This document shows, piece by piece, positions 2,035-34,902 of a DNA stretch of 41,909 nt. Under the pieces are notes generated by a model, which searched no databases, was not told the origin of the DNA, and saw only the letters and a list, made by a program, of their open reading frames with translations. The position numbers and the translations under genes are program-made. The stretch comes from an uncultured Flavonifractor sp. (lineage in GTDB: Bacteria; Bacillota; Clostridia; Oscillospirales; Oscillospiraceae). Each line of letters opens with the position of its first letter. The first letter of the stretch is position 1. The stretch is from contig CALWXT010000009.1 in assembly GCA_944385575.1 (NCBI GenBank), forward strand, positions 1-41,909, written 5' to 3'.

Positions 2035-3438
2035 GTGCTTTTTTCCAGTTCTGTATTCCTGTTTTTGTTTTTACCCGGAGTACTCATCGTCTATTACCTG
2101 TTCCTGCGCCGCTGGCGGCAGGCCCAGAATATCTTTCTGTTGGCGGCCTCCCTGGTATTTTACGCCTGGGGGGAGCCCTGGTTCGTGCTGGTGATGATGC
2201 TCTCTATCGTAGTCAATTACGGCTTCGGACTGTGGGTGGCCCGTGGACAGTCCACGGGCACGAAAGTGCCCGTGCTGATGGCCGTCTTGTTCAATTTGAG
2301 TATCCTATTCGTATTTAAGTATCTGACTTTTACGCTGGGTATTCTGAACCGCCTGGGCGGGAGCTTTGTGATCCCCGGTATTGAGCTGCCCATCGGCATT
2401 TCCTTCTTCACCTTCCAGGCTCTCAGCTACGTGCTGGATGTCCAGCGGGGCAGAGGACTGGTGCAGCGTTCCCCCCTGAAGGTGGGTCTGTACATCTCTT
2501 TCTTTCCCCAGCTTATTGCCGGCCCCATCGTCAAGTATGAGACGGTGGCCGACCAGATCGACAACCGGAAGGAGACCTGGGCGGACTTTTCCGCCGGGTG
2601 CAGCCGGTTCATCGTGGGCCTGGGGAAGAAGGTGCTGCTGTCCAATCAGCTGGCCTTGGTGGCTGACCGGGCCTTTGCTCTGGAGAGCGCGGACAAGCTG
2701 ACCCTCTCCTTCGCCTGGCTGGGCGCCCTGTGTTATACCTTCCAGATCTACTATGATTTCTCCGGCTATTCCGACATGGCCATCGGCCTGGGTAAAATGT
2801 TTGGCTTCCACTTTTTGGAGAACTTTAACTATCCCTATATTTCCAAATCCATCACCGAATTCTGGCGGCGGTGGCACATTTCTCTGTCCACCTGGTTCCG
2901 GGATTATGTCTACTTCCCGCTGGGAGGCAGCCGGGTATCCTCCAAGGCAAAGCATATTCGCAACCTGTTTGTGGTATGGCTGCTAACTGGTATCTGGCAC
3001 GGTGCCAACTGGACCTTTATCGCCTGGGGCCTGTTCTATTTCGTCCTGCTGGTGCTGGAGAAGTACGGACATCTGGGCCGGGGCTGGCCGGCGGTGTGCC
3101 AGTGGCTGTTTACCTTCCTGATGGTCAACTTTGCCTGGGTACTGTTCCGGGCGGAGGGGCTGGGTCAGGCAGCTGGCTATCTGGCGGCTATGTTCGGCCA
3201 GGGCGCCGGGCTGTGGAGCGCTGAGACCGGCCTATTCCTCCGGGAGAACTGGACGGTGCTGCTGGCCGGTGCGATCTTTGCCGCGCCTGTAGCACCCACC
3301 CTGCGGGACTGGGCGGCCAAGCGCAGCAGCGCTCTGCTGGATGTGGGTTACGCCCTGCTGGCGGCCTGCGTATTCCTGGTGTCGGCCAGCTTCATCATCA
3401 AGGGGACCTACAATCCCTTCATCTATTTCAATTTTTAA
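2035..3438 (+). CDS. MBOAT-family membrane O-acyltransferase (AlgI/DltB-like)
   Basis: This 467-residue polytopic membrane protein belongs to the MBOAT family. The two signature regions are WRRWHISLSTWFRDYVYFP with His281 and GIWHGANWTFIAWG with His322, the presumed catalytic histidine. AlgI, DltB and PatA-type homologues pass an acyl group across the membrane onto alginate, teichoic acid or peptidoglycan. The start is GTG at 2035, with TAAGGAGG overlapping the stop of the preceding gene. The next gene is a DHHW (AlgJ/AlgX-related) protein, the usual partner of AlgI-like acyltransferases, so acetylation of an exported or cell-surface polysaccharide is the most likely role. The acceptor cannot be told from the sequence. 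There is no dltA/C/D nearby, which argues against D-alanylation. Confidence 0.92.
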   Translation: MLFSSSVFLFLFLPGVLIVYYLFLRRWRQAQNIFLLAASLVFYAWGEPWFVLVMMLSIVVNYGFGLWVARGQSTGTKVPVLMAVLFNLSILFVFKYLTFTLGILNRLGGSFVIPGIELPIGISFFTFQALSYVLDVQRGRGLVQRSPLKVGLYISFFPQLIAGPIVKYETVADQIDNRKETWADFSAGCSRFIVGLGKKVLLSNQLALVADRAFALESADKLTLSFAWLGALCYTFQIYYDFSGYSDMAIGLGKMFGFHFLENFNYPYISKSITEFWRRWHISLSTWFRDYVYFPLGGSRVSSKAKHIRNLFVVWLLTGIWHGANWTFIAWGLFYFVLLVLEKYGHLGRGWPAVCQWLFTFLMVNFAWVLFRAEGLGQAAGYLAAMFGQGAGLWSAETGLFLRENWTVLLAGAIFAAPVAPTLRDWAAKRSSALLDVGYALLAACVFLVSASFIIKGTYNPFIYFNF

Positions 3439-9247: not shown

Positions 9248-12200
9248 TTATTTGCTCCAAGGATAGCAGAGGGGCTCCAGAGTGTCGGGATCCAGAAGGA
9301 ATACCTTGATGTGCTTGGCGGTATTGATGGGAAGGGAATAGGTCACTCTGCCCTCCTCGGGTGTGAGGAATACGCTGCGGCGCTCCATCAGCTTGCCGCC
9401 GTCATAGCTGGCAGCACAGAGGAGGACCGGCCCCATATCTTCGCTGACCTGGAGGGTCACGGCAGCGCGGTCGTAGCACAGGATGGAGATGGGCGCTTTG
9501 GCCTCCCAGACGAACCAGGGCAGGTCTCCGCTCTGCTGGTTGAGCTCCCAGACGCCGGTGAGATCCCAGCCCATGCCGGTATAGGTGTCGGCGCTGGCGA
9601 GGGCGGCGGAGGTGAGGGAGGTGGCGCCGCTGGTGGAGACCCTAATGTCGTAGCCCCGGTTGGCCACGCCGGTGAGGTACCGGTTGCCGCTGGCGCTGTT
9701 GTAGCGGTAGGCCACCGCATAGGAGTTGAACGCAACGCCGCCCTGGGAGCCGACAAAATAATTGTAATAGGAATCCACATACCGGCAGGCCACCAGGCAG
9801 TTTTTGATGGAGCCGGAGTAGTTGCAGTGCCCGGCGATGCCGCCGGCGTATGCGGCATTGCAGGCGCCGGCGGACACGTCACCGGAGTTGTAGCAGGACT
9901 GGATGGTGGTGCCGCTGCGGTAAAACTGCCCCACAATGCCCCCCGCGTAGCACTGGTAACACTCCAGCTCGCCGCCCACTACGTCGCCCTGGTTGTAGCA
10001 GTTGGACAGGCTGGAGTCGCTGGCGCCGGCGATGCCGCCCAGGACGAAGGTGCCGCCGGTGCGGCCGTAACACAGCATCCCCTCCACCTGGGCCAGGTTG
10101 CGGCACTGGCTGACGGTGAGACCGCTGCTCAGCCGGCCGAACACGCCGCCGCAGTAGGCGTTGGTGGTGGTGTCGTCGGTGGTGATCTCCCCGTCATTGC
10201 TGCAGCGGGTCAGGGTATAGCTGCCCGACTCAACGTAGCCCGCCACGCCGCCTATGCAGATCGTGGGGGCGTCACAGACGTAAATGCTGGCCCGGTTGGA
10301 GCAGTCGGTCAGGGAGGCGGCGGCATAGCCCGCCAGGCCGCCCACATGGAGCTGCATACTGCTGTAGCTGCTGCCCACCACGAACAGCGAGCCGGTGACA
10401 TAGCAGTTGGAGAGGGTGGTGCCGCCGTCCAGCCGGCCGGCCACGACGCCCGCGTTGATCGTTCCCGAGGCGGCAAAGGAAAGGGAGACCTGCTCCAGCC
10501 CCACGTTCTTGATGTCCGCGCCGTATGTCACCCCGAACAGGCCGGCGTAGCTGCCGGCGGGGGAGGTGATGGTCAGGCCCCGGATCACCCGTCCGCAGCC
10601 GTCGAAGGTGCCGGTAAAGGGGGCCGACTCCGTGCCGATGGGGGTCCAGTTTGTATAGCCGGACAGGTCCAGGTCGGCGGTAAGGGCGTAGGAGCCGTCC
10701 AGAGGGTAGTCCGGATCGGTTCCGATGCGGGCAAGGGCATCCGGGCTGTCGATGGGGGTGGCGGTGAGGTCGGGGTCCCCCACCTCACCCGGGAAAGGGC
10801 CGCCGGGCTCTTCCGGGACCTGGATGGGAGACACCTTGAAATGGGCGGTGAGGGTGACGGCGCAGTCAGGCAGGGTGAAAGCCACGGAACTGTTCGACGG
10901 ATAGGCCAGGTTCACACCCTCGCAGCTCCAGTGGTCGAAGAGCCAGTTCCGATCCGGAACCGCGTTCACTGTAATATACTCGCCGGGGGCGAAGAAACTG
11001 ATCGCCTCGGTGGCTGGTTCCTTGGAGCCCTGGAGCCAGTCGGAGGAGCTGCTGCCCCGGGCGGTGATTTTGCCGCCGGTTCCGGCCTGGATGGTGACCG
11101 ACCGGGCGTACAGCGTATAGTCCCGTTCATTGCACTGGACGCTTTTGAAACCGGCGCAATAATTGCTGCTGGTGGTATAGCCCAGCTGCTTGTCGGAGTT
11201 GGAGCCGCAGGCCAGCACGGAGTAGTCCTCCTTGACGATCAGGGTAAAGTCATCACCTGCCTCTGCCAGCAGCACGTCCTCCGCCATTTTGACAGGGACC
11301 GAACTGTCGGTGCGTGTGCCGTTGCCCAGCTGGCCATACATGTTGCGCCCCCAGCCCCAGAGGGTGCCGCTGCTGTCCAGGGCCACGATGTGCATAGATC
11401 TCGTGGAGATGGCGGTGATGTTTTCCAGACCCGACACCTGGACAGGCACTTCGCTGCCCCGGTTTTCCGTGCCGTTACCCAGCTGGCCCTCCCAGTTGCG
11501 GCCGCAGGCCCATACGGTGCCGTCCTCTGCCAGGGCGGCGCAGAAATAATCGCCGATGGCAAAGGAGCGGATCTTCCCGCAGGGCCAGTCCAGCTTGGTG
11601 GGGGTGGTGAGGGAGGTATCGCTGGTGCCGCTCTCCAGAGTGCCGAACCGGCCAAAGTAGTCGTCATAGCCCCACACATAGACCGAGCCGTCGGCAGCTT
11701 TGGCCGCTGAGCCGTTAGGGCCGGCCCAGATGGCTGTCACTGTCGGCAGTCCTGCGATTTGGACGGGCTGAGTCAGGACTGTCCCGGCTGCAGTGGCGAG
11801 ACAGCCGTCCCGGTCAAAACCGAATCCCCACACGACGCCATCCTTGTCCAGGGCCAGCAGATGGTTGTCGCCGGCGGCGATGGCGGTGATGTCCGTAAGG
11901 CGCTCAATGGGGGTGAGTGTATAATTGCTTAGCCCGGTGGCGATCTGTCCGGCATACCAGACAGTCCCGTCCCGCATCAGAAAGATGGAGGCGTAATAAG
12001 AGCAGACCACGTCGGCCACGTTCTGGAGCAACGGGACCCTGCCGGGGACGCAGTCGGCATAACCGTAGCGGTCGCCCAGTTGTTTATAGTTGTTGCTGCC
12101 CCAGCCGTAGACCGTGCCGCCGTCGTTCAGTGCCAGGGCGTGGATGCTGCCGGCGGCAATGGCAACCTGGGGGATCGAGCCTTCTTCGGAAGTAAAAGAA

Positions 12201-14884
12201 GGGGTGAGTACCACTTTGTTGTCCGGCATGGTGAAGACTGCCGGATTGGCCTGAGGATCAGCCAGCTCCACACCCTCTGCAGACCACGCCTGGAAGATAC
12301 TGCCCACGTTGGGCAGGGCGTCCACCGTGACCTGGGCGCCCTTGGGGAAATAGGTCTGTCCGGTGCGGCTGGCACCGCCGCCCCCCACGGCGGTGCCCAG
12401 CTCCAGGGGATAGACCAGCAGGGAGAAGGGCTGGTCGGAGTCCTGCTCCACCACAGGTACGAACTCAGAGGTGTCCCGATAGGTGCCGCAGCCCAGCTCG
12501 CCGTTGCCGTTGTAGCCGCAGGCGTACAGATAGCCGTCCTGATCCGCCGCGAAGGTCTGGGAATTGCCTGCCCGGACAAAGGAGACCGACTGGCGGACCT
12601 TCACGGGAACGGAACGGTCCTCCGTGGTGCCGTCCCCCAGCTGGCCGCTGGTGTTGACGCCCCAGGTCCACAGATTGCCTTCGGCGTCAATGGCGGCGGC
12701 GTGGCTGTACCCGGCGGAGATGGCGGTCACGTTGCTGAGGCCGGGGACCTTCACGGGGACATCACTGCTCTGGCCCACAAGGCCGGAGCCCCAGGTCCAC
12801 ACCGTGCCGTCCTGGCCCAGGGCCAGGAAATAGCCGCTGCCCACAGAGATGGCGGAGATGTGCTCCAGCTCCTCCACCTGCCTGGGCAGACGGTCTTCAG
12901 TAGAGCTGCCCCAGCCCACCGTCCAGACGGTACCGTCCCGGCACAGCAGCAGGGCCGCCGTGCCGCCCGCGGCGATGTCAATGATATTGGTGGGTATATA
13001 GTGAGTGGCGGGATAGGATGTGTCCGGAATGGTGAGCTTGGTGGGGGTGAGTACGCTTTCCATTCCGTTTATGATGTCCAAGCCCCAGTAATAGATAGAG
13101 GATTTGCCGTTCGGGTCGTGGTACAGACTCATGCTGAAGCACTCACCAGCGGCCAGGACAGAGCCGTAAAGGCCGGAGACGTAAGCGGGTTCCGCCGCGT
13201 TTTCCGTTTTGCCGTTGCCTAGCTGACCGGCGCTGTTGTCGCCCCAGGCGGAGTTCCGTTCTCCGATCACCAGGGTGTGCATCCCGCCGGCGGCCATGGC
13301 GGTGGCCTTCAGGGGGGCTCCGGAAGAGCCGGGGACGGTTGCCGCCGCCGGGCGGAATTCTTCTCCGCTCTCCTCCGGCCCGCCGTTGCCCAACTGACCG
13401 TAAAGATTGTTGCCCCAGGTCCACACGGTGCCGTCGCTGCGCAGGGCGGTGACGGTGGCGTAGCTCCCGGCCAGGTCGGGAGTCACCGACAGGCAGTCCG
13501 TCAGCTGGAACTGGGCGGTCAGGGAGGCGGGGCCGTTGGGCATGGTAAAGCTCTGGACGGTGTCCTGGGGTTCGGCAAGGGCAAGCCCCTCCCCGGACCA
13601 CCCCGCCCAGGAGCTTCCCAGCTCCGGGACGGCGTATACCGTCAGCTCCTCACCCGCCTGATAGAGGCCGGTGGAGAGCCCGGTGGTATTGCCCCCGGGC
13701 TGGGCCGTGATCCGCAGGGGATAGCGGTCGGCGTAAAAGGGCAGCCCGTCCTCATATTCCATGGGGCGGAAGTAGTCTGGGATGTCGGAGCTGCTGCCTC
13801 CGGGGCTCTGGATGGTGCCGTCTTCCATCAGCAGGATGGACCGGGAGCCGATGGCCACGCCCACGGCCGGCTGGGACACGTCGTCGATGTGGATTGCGGG
13901 AGAGATGCCGTTTGAGTTATAGAGCGGCGGCTTGTTGCCGAAATCTCCGTAGTAATTCAGGCCACAGGCCCACAATGCTCCGTCCTTGTCCAGGGCCAGG
14001 GTGTAATCGCTGCCGCAGGCCAGCGTGGTAATGTCAGTAAGCCCCACCATCTTCTGAGGCTTGTATGAGCTGCTGCTGGCTCCACTTGTAACGCTTATGT
14101 TCTTGGTATATCCCAACTGCCCGTCGGAGTTGTGTCCCCAGGACCAGACGGTGCCGTCCCCGCACAGGGCAAAGCAGGAGCCGCCGCCGGAGAGAACGGC
14201 GGTGATATTCTCCAGCCCCTCAATCTGGAGGGGTTCGATGGCAACCTGGTAGGGGTTCTGGCCGCCCCCCAGCCCACCGAATCGGTTGGAGCCCAAGGCC
14301 CATACCGTGCCGTCCGTCAGCAGTGCCAGGACATAGGTTTCATAGGAAAGATAACCCAGGGCTACGGAACGGACAGAGTTCAGCCTCTCTATTTTTACCG
14401 GCGAGGGGTGGGGGTTGTTGTCGTTAGTCAGCCCCAGCTGACCGCTTTTGTTGCCGCCCCAGATGTACAGAGCACCGTCCGACGTCACCGCCGCTTTGTT
14501 GGTGAGGCAGGAGGAGATGGCGACCACATCCTCCAGCCCCTCCACCATGGCGGGGGTGCCGCGGGTGGTGGTGGTGCCGTCCCCCAGCTGCCCTTTGTCG
14601 TTGGCGCCCCAGGTCCAGACGTGGCCGTCGGCGTCCAGGGCCATGCCGGGGGCGATGTCCACAATGCGCTCCAGCCCGTCCAGCAGGACCGGGTATCTGG
14701 AATTTACATTGGCGGGATCGTTGCTGCCCCACACATACACCGTGCCGTTGGACAGCAGGGCCATATCGCTGTCTATCTTGGGCTGGGTGGTAAAGGGCGC
14801 CTCCTCCGGCTCCGCTGCCAGGGATGCGGGAAGCAGGGACAGCAGCAGGGCTGCGGTCAGAAGAAATGATAAAAACCGCCTCAT
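9248..14884 (-). CDS. Giant secreted RCC1-repeat / InlB B-repeat / GLUG-repeat protein
   Basis: The 1878-residue protein has a cleavable signal peptide (residues 1-23, LLSLLPASLAAEP) and is probably exported. Three similar modules follow. Each has seven RCC1-type repeats of the form DGTVWTWGxNxxGQLG (about residues 40-385, 465-815 and 900-1255), enough for one seven-bladed propeller. Each block is followed by an InlB B-repeat-like stretch (about 386-458, 821-897 and 1259-1348; WAGWSGEG, FQAWSAEG and FDHWSCEG). A region with GLUG repeats follows (about 1446-1700; VGGLAGYAAASLTDC and similar), then a C-terminal beta-rich domain ending in KVFLLDPDTLEPLC. I see no LPXTG signal, SLH domain or long membrane anchor, so retention at the surface is unclear. 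It is likely an adhesin or other extracellular binding protein; no catalytic motif is visible. It stands alone between two terminators. A promoter with operator-like repeats lies upstream. Confidence 0.9.
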   Translation of the reverse strand: MRRFLSFLLTAALLLSLLPASLAAEPEEAPFTTQPKIDSDMALLSNGTVYVWGSNDPANVNSRYPVLLDGLERIVDIAPGMALDADGHVWTWGANDKGQLGDGTTTTRGTPAMVEGLEDVVAISSCLTNKAAVTSDGALYIWGGNKSGQLGLTNDNNPHPSPVKIERLNSVRSVALGYLSYETYVLALLTDGTVWALGSNRFGGLGGGQNPYQVAIEPLQIEGLENITAVLSGGGSCFALCGDGTVWSWGHNSDGQLGYTKNISVTSGASSSSYKPQKMVGLTDITTLACGSDYTLALDKDGALWACGLNYYGDFGNKPPLYNSNGISPAIHIDDVSQPAVGVAIGSRSILLMEDGTIQSPGGSSSDIPDYFRPMEYEDGLPFYADRYPLRITAQPGGNTTGLSTGLYQAGEELTVYAVPELGSSWAGWSGEGLALAEPQDTVQSFTMPNGPASLTAQFQLTDCLSVTPDLAGSYATVTALRSDGTVWTWGNNLYGQLGNGGPEESGEEFRPAAATVPGSSGAPLKATAMAAGGMHTLVIGERNSAWGDNSAGQLGNGKTENAAEPAYVSGLYGSVLAAGECFSMSLYHDPNGKSSIYYWGLDIINGMESVLTPTKLTIPDTSYPATHYIPTNIIDIAAGGTAALLLCRDGTVWTVGWGSSTEDRLPRQVEELEHISAISVGSGYFLALGQDGTVWTWGSGLVGQSSDVPVKVPGLSNVTAISAGYSHAAAIDAEGNLWTWGVNTSGQLGDGTTEDRSVPVKVRQSVSFVRAGNSQTFAADQDGYLYACGYNGNGELGCGTYRDTSEFVPVVEQDSDQPFSLLVYPLELGTAVGGGGASRTGQTYFPKGAQVTVDALPNVGSIFQAWSAEGVELADPQANPAVFTMPDNKVVLTPSFTSEEGSIPQVAIAAGSIHALALNDGGTVYGWGSNNYKQLGDRYGYADCVPGRVPLLQNVADVVCSYYASIFLMRDGTVWYAGQIATGLSNYTLTPIERLTDITAIAAGDNHLLALDKDGVVWGFGFDRDGCLATAAGTVLTQPVQIAGLPTVTAIWAGPNGSAAKAADGSVYVWGYDDYFGRFGTLESGTSDTSLTTPTKLDWPCGKIRSFAIGDYFCAALAEDGTVWACGRNWEGQLGNGTENRGSEVPVQVSGLENITAISTRSMHIVALDSSGTLWGWGRNMYGQLGNGTRTDSSVPVKMAEDVLLAEAGDDFTLIVKEDYSVLACGSNSDKQLGYTTSSNYCAGFKSVQCNERDYTLYARSVTIQAGTGGKITARGSSSSDWLQGSKEPATEAISFFAPGEYITVNAVPDRNWLFDHWSCEGVNLAYPSNSSVAFTLPDCAVTLTAHFKVSPIQVPEEPGGPFPGEVGDPDLTATPIDSPDALARIGTDPDYPLDGSYALTADLDLSGYTNWTPIGTESAPFTGTFDGCGRVIRGLTITSPAGSYAGLFGVTYGADIKNVGLEQVSLSFAASGTINAGVVAGRLDGGTTLSNCYVTGSLFVVGSSYSSMQLHVGGLAGYAAASLTDCSNRASIYVCDAPTICIGGVAGYVESGSYTLTRCSNDGEITTDDTTTNAYCGGVFGRLSSGLTVSQCRNLAQVEGMLCYGRTGGTFVLGGIAGASDSSLSNCYNQGDVVGGELECYQCYAGGIVGQFYRSGTTIQSCYNSGDVSAGACNAAYAGGIAGHCNYSGSIKNCLVACRYVDSYYNYFVGSQGGVAFNSYAVAYRYNSASGNRYLTGVANRGYDIRVSTSGATSLTSAALASADTYTGMGWDLTGVWELNQQSGDLPWFVWEAKAPISILCYDRAAVTLQVSEDMGPVLLCAASYDGGKLMERRSVFLTPEEGRVTYSLPINTAKHIKVFLLDPDTLEPLCYPWSK

Positions 14885-33195: not shown

Positions 33196-33247
33196 TGGCC
33201 AAATCCGCCGGAGCGGTGTATGATAGGCATGTACAATTCCTATTGTA
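33196..33247 (+). promoter_or_regulatory. Candidate sigma-A promoter and inverted repeat of pgi
   Basis: TGGCCA (33196-33201), 17 bases, TATGAT (33219-33224) preceded by GGTG, as for pyk. Just downstream is a 6-bp inverted repeat TACAAT-TCCT-ATTGTA (33232-33247) in the early leader, a possible operator. Confidence 0.5.
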
Positions 33248-33270
33248 AAAAGATAAGGAGTGACGTCACT

Positions 33271-34605
33271 ATGATGATCAAATTTGACACCTCCAACGCG
33301 ACCCCGTTTTTGCCCCAGGACTGGCTGACCAGCCGGATGGATGCCCTGGAGAGCGGCCGGGCCAAGCTGGAAAACGGCAGTGGCCTGGGCGGCGAGTATA
33401 CCGGCTGGGTGCACCTGCCCCGGGATTATGATAAAGAAGAATTCGCCCGCATTCAGGCGGCGGCTGAGCGCATCCGCAAGGATTCCCAGGCCCTGGTGGT
33501 CATTGGCATCGGCGGCTCCTACCTGGGCGCCCGGGCCGTGGTGGAGCTGGTCAATTCCCCCAACTTCAACCTGACCCACAAGGACGGCCCCGACATCTAT
33601 TTTGCCGGCAACGGCCTGTCTGCTGACGCCATGCTGGAGGTTATCGACCTTATCAAGGACAAGGACTGGTCCATCAATGTGATCTCCAAGTCGGGCACTA
33701 CTACCGAGCCCGCCGTGGCCTTCCGCATTTTCAAGAATCTGCTGGAGGAGAAGTACGGCAAGGAGGAAGCCCGCAAGCGTATCTATGCCACTACCGATGC
33801 CAAGAAGGGCGCCCTGAAGGGCCTGGCCGACGCCGAGGGCTATGAGGAATTCGTGGTGCCCGACGCTGTGGGCGGCCGCTATTCCGTGCTTACCGCCGTG
33901 GGTCTGCTGCCCATTGCCTGCGCCGGCGTGGATATTGTGGAGCTGATGGCCGGTGCCCGGGAGGCCATGGACGCCCTGTCTGTGCCCGGCGCGGAAAACC
34001 CCGCCTGGCAGTATGCCGCCGCCCGCCACGCCCTGTACACCGCCGGCAAGAAGGTGGAGATCCTGGTGGGATATGAGCCCTCCTTCCGCTTCTTCGGCGA
34101 GTGGTGGAAGCAGCTGTTCGGCGAGACCGAGGGCAAGGACGGCAAGGCGCTGTTCCCCGCCAGCGTGGAATTCACCGCCGACCTGCACTCCATGGGCCAG
34201 TACATCCAGCAGGGTGAGCGCCTCATGCTGGAGACTGTGGTGCGCTTTGAAAAGAGCCGGGGCTCTATCGCCATCCCCCACGACCCGGATAACGTGGACG
34301 GCCTGAACTTCCTGGCGGGCAAGGACCTGTCCTTCGTGGCCGAGCAGGCCATGCGCGGCACCCTTCTGGCCCATGTGGACGGCGGCGTGCCCAACCTGAT
34401 GGTCACCGCCCCCGGCCGGGATGCCAGAAGCGTGGGCGCGCTGATCTACTTCTTTGAGTATGCCTGCGGCCTGTCCGGCTATCTGCTGGAGATCAACCCC
34501 TTTGACCAGCCCGGCGTGGAGGCTTACAAGAATAACATGTACGCTCTGCTGGGCAAGCCGGGCTACGAGGACAAGAAGGCTGAACTGGAGGCCCGCCTGA
34601 GCTGA
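33271..34605 (+). CDS. pgi: Glucose-6-phosphate isomerase
   Basis: The 444-residue enzyme interconverts glucose 6-phosphate and fructose 6-phosphate. Substrate-binding and catalytic segments are [63 protein letters not shown] and a C-terminal lysine region ([20 protein letters not shown]). Its length is typical of Firmicutes. The ATG at 33271 follows AAGGAG by 10 bases; an in-frame start at 33220 lies inside the promoter and is rejected. The last codons (from 34571) are repeated downstream around a structured insert. No conventional terminator directly follows the stop. Confidence 0.97.
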
Positions 34606-34606
34606 G
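34571..34606 (+). repeat. 36-bp direct repeat, copy 1 (end of pgi)
   Basis: The segment covers the last 11 or so pgi codons, the stop and one further base. It recurs at 34746-34781 with a single change (C at 34602, T at 34777), which would leave the serine codon silent (AGC/AGT). Confidence 0.9.
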
Positions 34607-34745
34607 ACCTGGGAAAGCCGTCTTGTCCTCGGGGACCCGTCGCAGGCGGGACGGCGCTTATGCGCCGAAGGGCGGCGGAATTCACTTTCGCCGCCCACAG
34701 ATGAAAGACTGGGGGTCCCCATGGGAGCAAGCTCCCATGGGGCGA
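34607..34745. mobile_element. Structured 139-bp insert between the pgi repeats (possible mobile or remnant element)
   Basis: The insert has no ORF of note but is packed with perfect inverted repeats: GGCGC-TTAT-GCGCC (34653-34666), GGGCGGCG / CGCCGCCC (34670-34677 and 34689-34696), CCCCATGGGAGC / GCTCCCATGGGG (34717-34728 and 34731-34742), and a long-range pair GGGGACCC / GGGTCCCC (34631-34638 and 34713-34720) enclosing the first two. The last two pairings exclude each other in part. Flanking 36-bp direct repeats suggest integration at the 3' end of pgi. It could equally be a mobile non-coding RNA, a MITE-like element or what remains after a larger element was lost. No transposase is visible. 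Confidence 0.5.
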
Positions 34746-34781
34746 ACAAGAAGGCTGAACTGGAGGCCCGCCTGAGTTGAG
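34746..34781 (+). repeat. 36-bp direct repeat, copy 2
   Basis: Second copy of the pgi 3' end, no longer attached to a reading frame. One mismatch to copy 1. It is followed by GCGGTTTGCTTGGGAATTTT, which may be the original sequence after pgi. Confidence 0.9.
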
Positions 34782-34821
34782 CGGTTTGCTTGGGAATTTT
34801 TTGTGAACTTTAGCAAATCAG

Positions 34822-34880
34822 TTGCAATCCAACGGTAAAAATGGTAACATAAATGCACCAGGCCGGGGGTTCGTCCCGGC
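34822..34880 (+). promoter_or_regulatory. Promoter and leader hairpin of the small P-loop gene
   Basis: TTGCAA (34822-34827), 17 bases, TAACAT (34845-34850) with extended TGG before the -10. A hairpin GCCGGG / CCCGGC (about 34862-34880) follows in the leader. Confidence 0.65.
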
Positions 34881-34902
34881 GTACTAAGAAGGAGTGATAA
34901 CT

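What the first reader, a model, noticed from the sequence alone, without database searches (positions are those of the whole stretch)
34571..34781. 36-bp duplication of the pgi 3' end around a highly structured 139-bp insert
The end of pgi is repeated 175 bases downstream (36 bases, one change that is silent in the codon). The 139 bases between consist largely of perfect inverted repeats, including a 12-bp hairpin, an 8-bp hairpin, a 5-bp hairpin with a TTAT loop and a long-range 8-bp pair that competes with one of them. An integrase-type event that rebuilds the end of the target gene would give this picture, with the silent difference reflecting a carried-in gene end. The insert could be a mobile non-coding RNA, a MITE-like element or the scar of a larger island. 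No transposase or integrase is present.
Basis: partly seen in the sequence, partly recalled or inferred. Interest (0 to 1): 0.75.

Follow-up and report, generated by a model that had tools for sequence, protein, structure and literature searches.

The report
Guide-bearing homing element at gene ends
A short structured DNA element, common in the gut bacterium Flavonifractor and its relatives, sits behind many housekeeping genes, carries a spare copy of the gene's own end plus a short stretch complementary to its insertion point, and appears to have spread between species at the same sites, which would be an undescribed way for a tiny element without genes to move.

Summary
The 139-bp insert behind pgi (34607-34745) belongs to a structured element family ("E") found in 20 of 20 genomes of the genus (Flavonifractor, own genome included). 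In 136 of 160 copies examined, E stands between two copies of the edge of a host gene, at 78 site clusters in many genes. Just 5' of the E core lies a guide, the reverse complement of the target across the point where the second gene end begins (58 of 78 sites; 115 of 6006 swapped controls). The fold is backed by covariation in 24 of 29 pairs. Six of 18 pgi loci are empty; three insertion points in pgi carry different, fitting guides. Site states are scattered on the pgi tree; copy 2 runs on into species-specific DNA. Best reading: an ORF-less homing unit guided by base pairing that enters with its own gene end and displaces the native end downstream. The enzyme is unknown: no one of five candidate families was seen in every genome. 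No Rfam match and no description in the searches made.

The parts
33220..34605 (+). host gene pgi (glucose-6-phosphate isomerase), ending inside copy 1
   Evidence: ORF; PF00342
34566..34581 (+). target stretch a|b, paired by the guide; the boundary lies at about 34568-34571 (exact base ambiguous)
   Evidence: inverted repeat I1, 15 of 16
34571..34606 (+). copy 1: end of pgi with its stop codon
   Evidence: direct repeat D1
34607..34615 (+). linker between copy 1 and guide
   Evidence: by position
34616..34631 (+). guide: reverse complement of the target across the boundary
   Evidence: statistics over 78 sites
34630..34745 (+). E core, whole-length match to covariance model R1 (123.4 bits; this sequence is one of the 20 used to build the model)
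34636..34650 (+). hairpin 1
   Evidence: covariation
34652..34667 (+). hairpin 2 (TTAT loop)
   Evidence: covariation
34670..34696 (+). hairpin 3 with conserved ATTCA..TT loop region
34717..34742 (+). hairpin 4, 12-bp perfect, next to the right junction
34746..34781 (+). copy 2: displaced gene end, by analogy with relatives the native one
   Evidence: comparison of 18 pgi loci

Best explanation
E is an ORF-less homing unit: [host-gene end (copy 1) - linker - guide - E core]. It enters an E-free allele at a point a|b inside the gene, usually near its 3' end, chosen by pairing of the guide, rc(b)rc(a), with the target. The unit's copy 1 becomes the working gene end; the native end is displaced behind E as copy 2. 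Because a|b stays intact at the left junction, an occupied site can be hit again, which would give the tandem units. Shown: the anatomy, the guide-target match, covariation of the fold, guides that follow their own target, empty sites, patchy distribution, decay of copy 2. Inferred: that the guide acts during insertion, most likely as sense-strand RNA serving a trans-acting nuclease or recombinase, with copying or strand transfer joining the 3' end of E to b. Unknown: the enzyme, and how a new guide arises at a new site.
For: Duplicated gene edge at E's 3' end in 136 of 160 copies; guide score >=9 at 58 of 78 sites versus 115 of 6006 swapped pairs. pgi used at three points with three fitting guides, 6 empty loci, one locus (G006) with two different units in a row, tandem units in G014 and G019. 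E of pgi sites A and B are 88-91% alike yet have different guides and boundaries. Site states scattered on the pgi tree: 10 changes, no better than shuffles. Linker-guide-E 94-95% alike among G006, G011, G015 against 53-66% for the 32-38 nt behind copy 2 and 88-93% for the gene body. 327 synonymous to 97 non-synonymous differences between the two ends, 97.9 synonymous expected at random, as if both ends had worked in separate lineages. Where the target differs between same-site pairs, both still pair in 62 of 153 cells. Fold: 24 of 29 pairs with two-sided changes, G-U 46 to A-C 9.
Against: No partner enzyme found. 24 of 160 copies lack the duplication at E's end and 20 of 78 sites have guide scores below 9; in other families of the order several E copies stand without a gene-edge duplication. 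In 57 of 153 cells one partner no longer pairs and in 34 neither does. The window's own unit is not closer to the other site A units (81-82%) than the gene body is (85-87%). In the window the two ends are almost identical, and 12 of 136 copies have ends of rounded identity 1.00, which would also fit a duplication made on the spot. Near the boundary the test for a foreign copy 1 was clear in one case only (G019: gene body 90-95% to its neighbour, copy 1 75%), and that copy 1 is no closer to other site B units (67-75%); G003, G011, G014 and G015 were not decisive. No transcript data.
Confidence: 0.6

Rival explanations
1. Single-strand DNA transposition of IS200/IS605 type in trans: the start of copy 1 is the left cleavage site, the guide an extended left guide beside the left hairpins, hairpin 4 the right end; insertion is precise and without target duplication.
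For: Same order of cleavage site, guide and hairpin; IS608 picks a tetranucleotide target by pairing and was engineered to 12- and 17-nt targets (PMC5934647, passages). Y1_Tnp matches in 7 of the 13 genus genomes tested; one Y1 gene lies downstream of an E copy in L069.
Against: No Y1 match in 6 of those 13, among them G011 (92% complete) and the own genome (82% complete). The guide pairs on both sides of the boundary and is far longer than the natural 4 nt. G-U excess suits RNA better, though it does not exclude DNA.
Confidence: 0.2
2. Passive spread: the gene-edge duplication and the inverted guide are scars of template switching or snap-back synthesis when E first entered, and later spread is ordinary homologous recombination that uses gene body and copy 2 as arms; the guide has no function.
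For: Needs no enzyme; copy 2 supplies a right arm of tens of bases; would explain how a guide is copied from each new target. E subtypes are gene-specific (all 43 pairs above 86% lie in one gene each).
Against: Guides that changed with the target at the same site (62 of 153 cells); the conserved core next to every guide; reuse of one gene at three points.
Confidence: 0.13
3. Intron-like RNA element: copy1+E is spliced out so that copy 2 is translated.
For: The guide pairs with both sides of the junction like an internal guide sequence; silent differences between the ends.
Against: Copy 2 is truncated or nearly lost in G014 and G019 and altered in G015; antisense copies at gene starts (12 of 136 by a crude test); E lies in an open frame in three recG loci, so splicing is not needed there; E is about 115 nt and has no match to intron families in Rfam.
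Confidence: 0.03
4. Integrase-type insertion at gene 3' ends, with E as the remnant of an island.
For: Rebuilding of the gene end resembles such integration (general knowledge).
Against: No island in the 16 pgi loci read through; no shared core sequence at 61 sites; the guide is unexplained.
Confidence: 0.03

Closest known systems
Mobile endonuclease ORFs (mORFs) of fungal mitochondria (Glomus atp6, atp9, cox2, nad3; Allomyces atp6), PMC3630166, passages seen
   Same: Insertion at a gene's 3' end brings a foreign C-terminus, the native one is left downstream, and the differences are largely silent; interpreted there as homing and horizontal transfer.
   Different: mORFs encode a LAGLIDADG or GIY-YIG endonuclease; E has no room for one, has a conserved fold and a guide to the target, and is bacterial.
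IS608 (IS200/IS605 family) and its palindromic derivatives, PMC5934647, passages seen
   Same: Hairpin ends; target chosen by base pairing with a guide beside the hairpin.
   Different: IS608 pairs 4 nt on one side and carries tnpA/tnpB; E pairs about 9-17 nt on both sides and carries a host gene end.
Palindromic GC clusters of yeast mitochondria, PMC4478555, abstract and introduction seen
   Same: Small GC-rich palindromic elements without genes, patchy, exchanged between species.
   Different: No host-gene end and no guide are described in the part seen.
IscB/TnpB-type RNA-guided systems (OMEGA) and HEARO RNA (recalled)
   Same: A structured RNA with a guide; the 5'-guide, 3'-scaffold order resembles IscB.
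   Different: No Rfam match, no RRXRR protein found (without a positive control), no PAM/TAM-like motif, and the guide is an internal inverted copy rather than flanking DNA.
REP elements (recalled)
   Same: Repeated palindromic DNA at gene ends.
   Different: E has four hairpins, a guide and a gene-edge duplication at most copies examined.

Membership tests
Mitochondrial-type mORF (homing endonuclease with a gene C-terminus) | foreign gene end inserted, native end left downstream | tested here: met
   (in relatives; the window alone is not informative)
Mitochondrial-type mORF (homing endonuclease with a gene C-terminus) | endonuclease ORF inside the insert | tested here: not met
   the 139-bp insert is too short for an endonuclease ORF; E matches in the copies examined are about 90-150 nt
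IS200/IS605 non-autonomous element | hairpin ends with a guide beside the hairpin that pairs with the cleavage site | tested here: met
   in outline only; pairing is longer and two-sided
IS200/IS605 non-autonomous element | Y1 transposase present in the host | tested here: inconclusive
   7 of 13 genus genomes tested; draft genomes
IS200/IS605 non-autonomous element | movement through single-stranded DNA by TnpA | not testable with these tools
   needs an experiment
RNA-guided nuclease system (IscB, TnpB) | PAM/TAM-like motif beside the target | tested here: not met
   61 boundaries, highest information 0.55 bit
RNA-guided nuclease system (IscB, TnpB) | cognate nuclease in E-bearing genomes | tested here: inconclusive
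   TnpB over cut-off in 6 of 20; RRXRR in 0 of 20 genomes, 13 of them of the genus, no positive control
Rfam families (HEARO and others) | match to a covariance model | tested here: not met
   no match near a gathering score
IS110 with bridge RNA | DEDD transposase in E-bearing genomes | tested here: inconclusive
   over cut-off in 9 of 20
Retroelement or group II intron derivative | reverse transcriptase in E-bearing genomes | tested here: inconclusive
   7 of 20, and 7 of 9 near-complete; absent in G005 and G011
Integrase island remnant | larger island or fixed att core at the site | tested here: not met

The most novel reading that the evidence does not exclude
A family of RNA-guided homing elements without genes: a structured RNA of about 115 nt with a 5' guide directs an unknown enzyme to a matching site in conserved genes and enters with its own replacement gene end, so that the host gene is not broken; the guide is renewed to fit each new allele.
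Probability: 0.4. Interest if true: 0.95.

Novelty: categorically new. Interest (0 to 1): 0.88.

Why it matters
If true, base-pairing guides can drive the homing of elements of roughly 200 bp with no ORF, at many housekeeping genes of a common gut genus. It offers a large natural set of guide-target pairs, a direct test of what sets insertion specificity, and it implies an unidentified enzyme that may need no evident PAM. It also means that the C-termini of housekeeping genes can be swapped between species, which affects gene trees and annotation. As a bacterial counterpart of mitochondrial mORFs that carry C-termini it links two separate literatures.

Tried and rejected
Rfam: only three weak hits far below gathering scores on the window locus, none on 20 other loci at E<=0.05. 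Phage and plasmid collections by blastn with the window insert: no match. Partner enzyme: RT, Y1 (21), RRXRR (43), TnpB (77), IS110 (78): none in every genome searched; G011 (92% complete) has no RT, Y1 or IS110 match and only a TnpB hit below cut-off. Motif search at 61 boundaries: no PAM/TAM. Splicing to copy 2: rejected because copy 2 decays. Recent jumps between genes: none among the 43 pairs above 86% identity. An autonomous version with an ORF was not searched for systematically. The E-bearing viral contigs L272 and L273 were scanned for ORFs without pointing to a partner; only one L273 protein was run against Pfam. Literature: searches gave no description of this element in what I saw (listings; 4 papers opened); the library lacks most subscription journals and holds no preprints.

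Limits of the counts. The 160 copies are the better-scoring ones, not a random sample: 65 from the list (60 regions fetched), 27, and 73 of the 90 rows (17 dropped as repeats of loci, cut or weak); 165 in all, 160 after removing identical ones. Site clusters are made by similarity of 34 bases and can merge different genes (seen). Guide statistics were run twice: the first version (30-nt window, duplication score >=40) gave 67 of 97 sites at >=9 and 139 of 9312 controls; I widened the window to 60 nt and relaxed the score to 26 after seeing short E forms with an extra hairpin. ORF calls are crude: at least one copy (G019:C168) was probably read in a wrong frame and stays in the 327:97 count; 5 of 98 copies have an indel. 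One search was replaced, whose cells are pairwise comparisons, not independent events. In one search windows more than about 200 nt upstream are off register for some pairs, and the neighbours used were not all supported sisters. Alignment A3 was fitted to the structure that one search counts. R1 E-values are rough (short calibration).

Full report
OBSERVATION. The window holds pgi (33220-34605), whose last 36 bases recur 175 bases downstream with one silent change. Between the copies lie 139 bases made largely of hairpins.

COPIES. BLAST with the locus found three further places in the same genome. Among 40 genomes searched with the insert, 20 matched, all 20 of the genus (own genome included) and none of the 20 of other genera. 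Covariance model R1 (20 rows) matched 20 of 20 genus genomes, 8 to 49 hits each at E<=0.01 with only the best 150 candidates per genome scored; 24 of 295 genomes across the order at E<=0.001; and 2 of 398 across the phylum at E<=1e-4, the own genome and one of its family. The window has one E; other R1 hits there are at 16 bits or less. The genus is Flavonifractor by inference: contig G013:C171 (7541 bases, E at 3067-3168) agrees in length and E position with NZ_JH417787.1 of F. plautii ATCC 29863. Of 7 viral contigs that hold the hairpin 3 pattern, two have R1 hits (L272, L273); in L273 E follows the end of a phage gene that I take for a terminase (recall; no Pfam hit) with that end duplicated.

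ANATOMY. Each typical copy reads: gene - edge of the gene (copy 1) - short linker - guide - E core (hairpins 1 to 4) - second copy of the gene edge (copy 2). Of 160 distinct copies 136 have the duplication directly at the 3' end of E; they fall into 78 site clusters. With one random copy per cluster the guide scores 9 or more at 58 of 78, against 115 of 6006 swapped guide-target pairs; at 10 or more 52 of 78 against 45 of 6006. Pairing mostly runs from 2-7 bases before the boundary to 5-13 after it. Best family models for the genes include deoC, groES, mgsA, asnS, a pyruvate carboxylase-like gene, an M42 peptidase, rubrerythrin, nusA, lepA and efp (10 proteins) and ychF, RNase H, an ABC permease, infB, pgi, a DUF554 gene, argininosuccinate lyase, D-Tyr-tRNA deacylase and a response regulator (9 of 10 proteins); many were given as C-terminal parts and score below the cut-offs for whole proteins. 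By a crude ORF test 98 of 136 copies have the gene's stop codon inside copy 1, 12 lie antisense over a gene start, and 26 were other or unclear.

FOLD. On 50 distinct sequences 24 of 29 pairs show changes on both sides, 96.3% of cells pair, and none of 500 shuffles reached any of five measures (the alignment was fitted to this structure). G-U pairs number 46 and A-C 9, so the sense strand is probably the one that folds, which suits RNA; single-stranded DNA is not excluded.

PGI ACROSS THE GENUS. A pgi search matched 19 of 20 genomes; 18 loci were laid out, of which G012 ends before the site can be typed and G005 ends inside E. Six are empty (G001, G004, G008, G013, G017, G018). Site A is used in G000, G006, G011 and G015, site B in G005, G007, G010 and G019, site C in G003, G006 and G014, each with a guide that fits its own boundary. 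G006 carries a site C unit followed by a site A unit; G014 and G019 carry tandem units; G002 has a tandem gene end without E, possibly a scar. Copy 2 is followed by species-specific DNA as in empty relatives, while copy 1 has endings that travel with the unit, such as a final Ser codon at site A. E of sites A and B are 88-91% alike (G006, G011, G015 against G007, G019) with different guides. Site states on the pgi tree need 10 changes, no better than shuffled labels. Among G006, G011 and G015 the linker-guide-E part is 94-95% identical, the last 300 bases of gene body 88-93%, copy 1 86-89%, copy 2 73-86% and the 32-38 bases behind copy 2 53-66%; for G000 against these three the module is 81-82% and the body 85-87%, so the window's own unit shows no recent exchange with them. 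Windows near the boundary gave one clear case, G019, where the body is 90-95% and copy 1 75% identical to its nearest empty relative; four others were undecided.

TWO GENE ENDS. In 98 sense copies the two ends differ by 327 synonymous and 97 non-synonymous base changes; 97.9 synonymous would be expected for random change. The simplest reading is that the two ends evolved as working gene ends in different lineages and then met. In the window they are nearly identical, so the window alone cannot show this, and 12 of 136 copies have ends of rounded identity 1.00.

GUIDE. In 96 same-site pairs from different loci the target differs in 153 compared cells: in 62 both partners still pair, in 57 only one, in 34 neither. 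So guides tend to follow their own target, imperfectly. The surroundings of 61 boundaries show no motif above 0.55 bit, so recognition seems to rest on pairing.

MECHANISM. The unit copy1+guide+E behaves as one mobile piece inserted at a|b. Opening of a|b in an empty allele under the guide, followed by copying or strand transfer from the occupied allele, would give a donor copy 1 and a native copy 2; since a|b is kept on the left, repeat events would give tandem units (13 neighbouring same-strand pairs among the 160 copies; a few of these, in L137, L153 and L272, lack a clear duplication). These steps are inferred. Over-cut-off RT matches occur in 7 of 20 genus genomes, TnpB in 6 of 20, IS110 in 9 of 20, Y1 matches in 7 of 13 tested and RRXRR in none, without a positive control; the genomes are drafts, so this excludes nothing firmly. 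All 43 E pairs above 86% identity lie within one gene each, so moves to new genes must be rare, and how a new guide arises is open.

COMPARISON. It works like the mORFs of fungal mitochondria, which bring a foreign C-terminus and displace the native one with largely silent differences (PMC3630166, passages), but E encodes no endonuclease. It resembles IS608 in choosing targets by pairing (PMC5934647, passages), but the guide is longer and two-sided. Small palindromic elements that pass between species are known in yeast mitochondria (PMC4478555, abstract). No Rfam family matches. Searches showed no description of it; the library is limited.

VERDICT. Observation confirmed; interpretation partly supported; a new, widespread mobile element that bears a guide and carries a gene end, with an unknown enzyme.

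Noticed in passing
L073:581-699 (+), L129:1501-1619 (+), L130:1501-1616 (-): E lies in mid-gene in a helicase gene that I take for recG (named by recall), at the same place in three genera, and in all three the frame stays open through E, so the protein may hold a translated E segment between two copies of QRAALAAK.
   Followed up: partly
L151-L269: The hairpin 3 sequence GGCGGAATTCACTTYCGCC occurs 88 times in loci without an R1 hit, in other repeats and other taxa (for example Saccharibacteria, Mailhella and many unnamed Clostridia). It may be a hairpin shared by several repeat families.
   Followed up: no
L272 and L273 (IMG/VR contigs): E copies on viral contigs: in tandem between phage genes in L272, behind a duplicated gene end in L273.
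   Followed up: partly
L279 (G002): pgi with a tandem duplication of its last codons and no E, possibly a scar after loss of a unit.
   Followed up: no
L023, L024, L069: Copy 1 runs through a terminator-like hairpin and T-run, and the guide follows at once or nearly so; transcript 3' ends might play a part in forming new units (inference).
   Followed up: no
window 34790-34902: The 112-113 bases before the next gene are 90-95% identical across four species although the DNA between them and pgi is not; a conserved leader or promoter. The gene behind (140 aa from 34894, P-loop-like GVKGTGKT) had no Pfam hit at 1e-5.
   Followed up: no
window 9248-14884 (-): ORF of 1878 aa with RCC1-like and InlB B-type repeats, unusual in a bacterium.
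   Followed up: no
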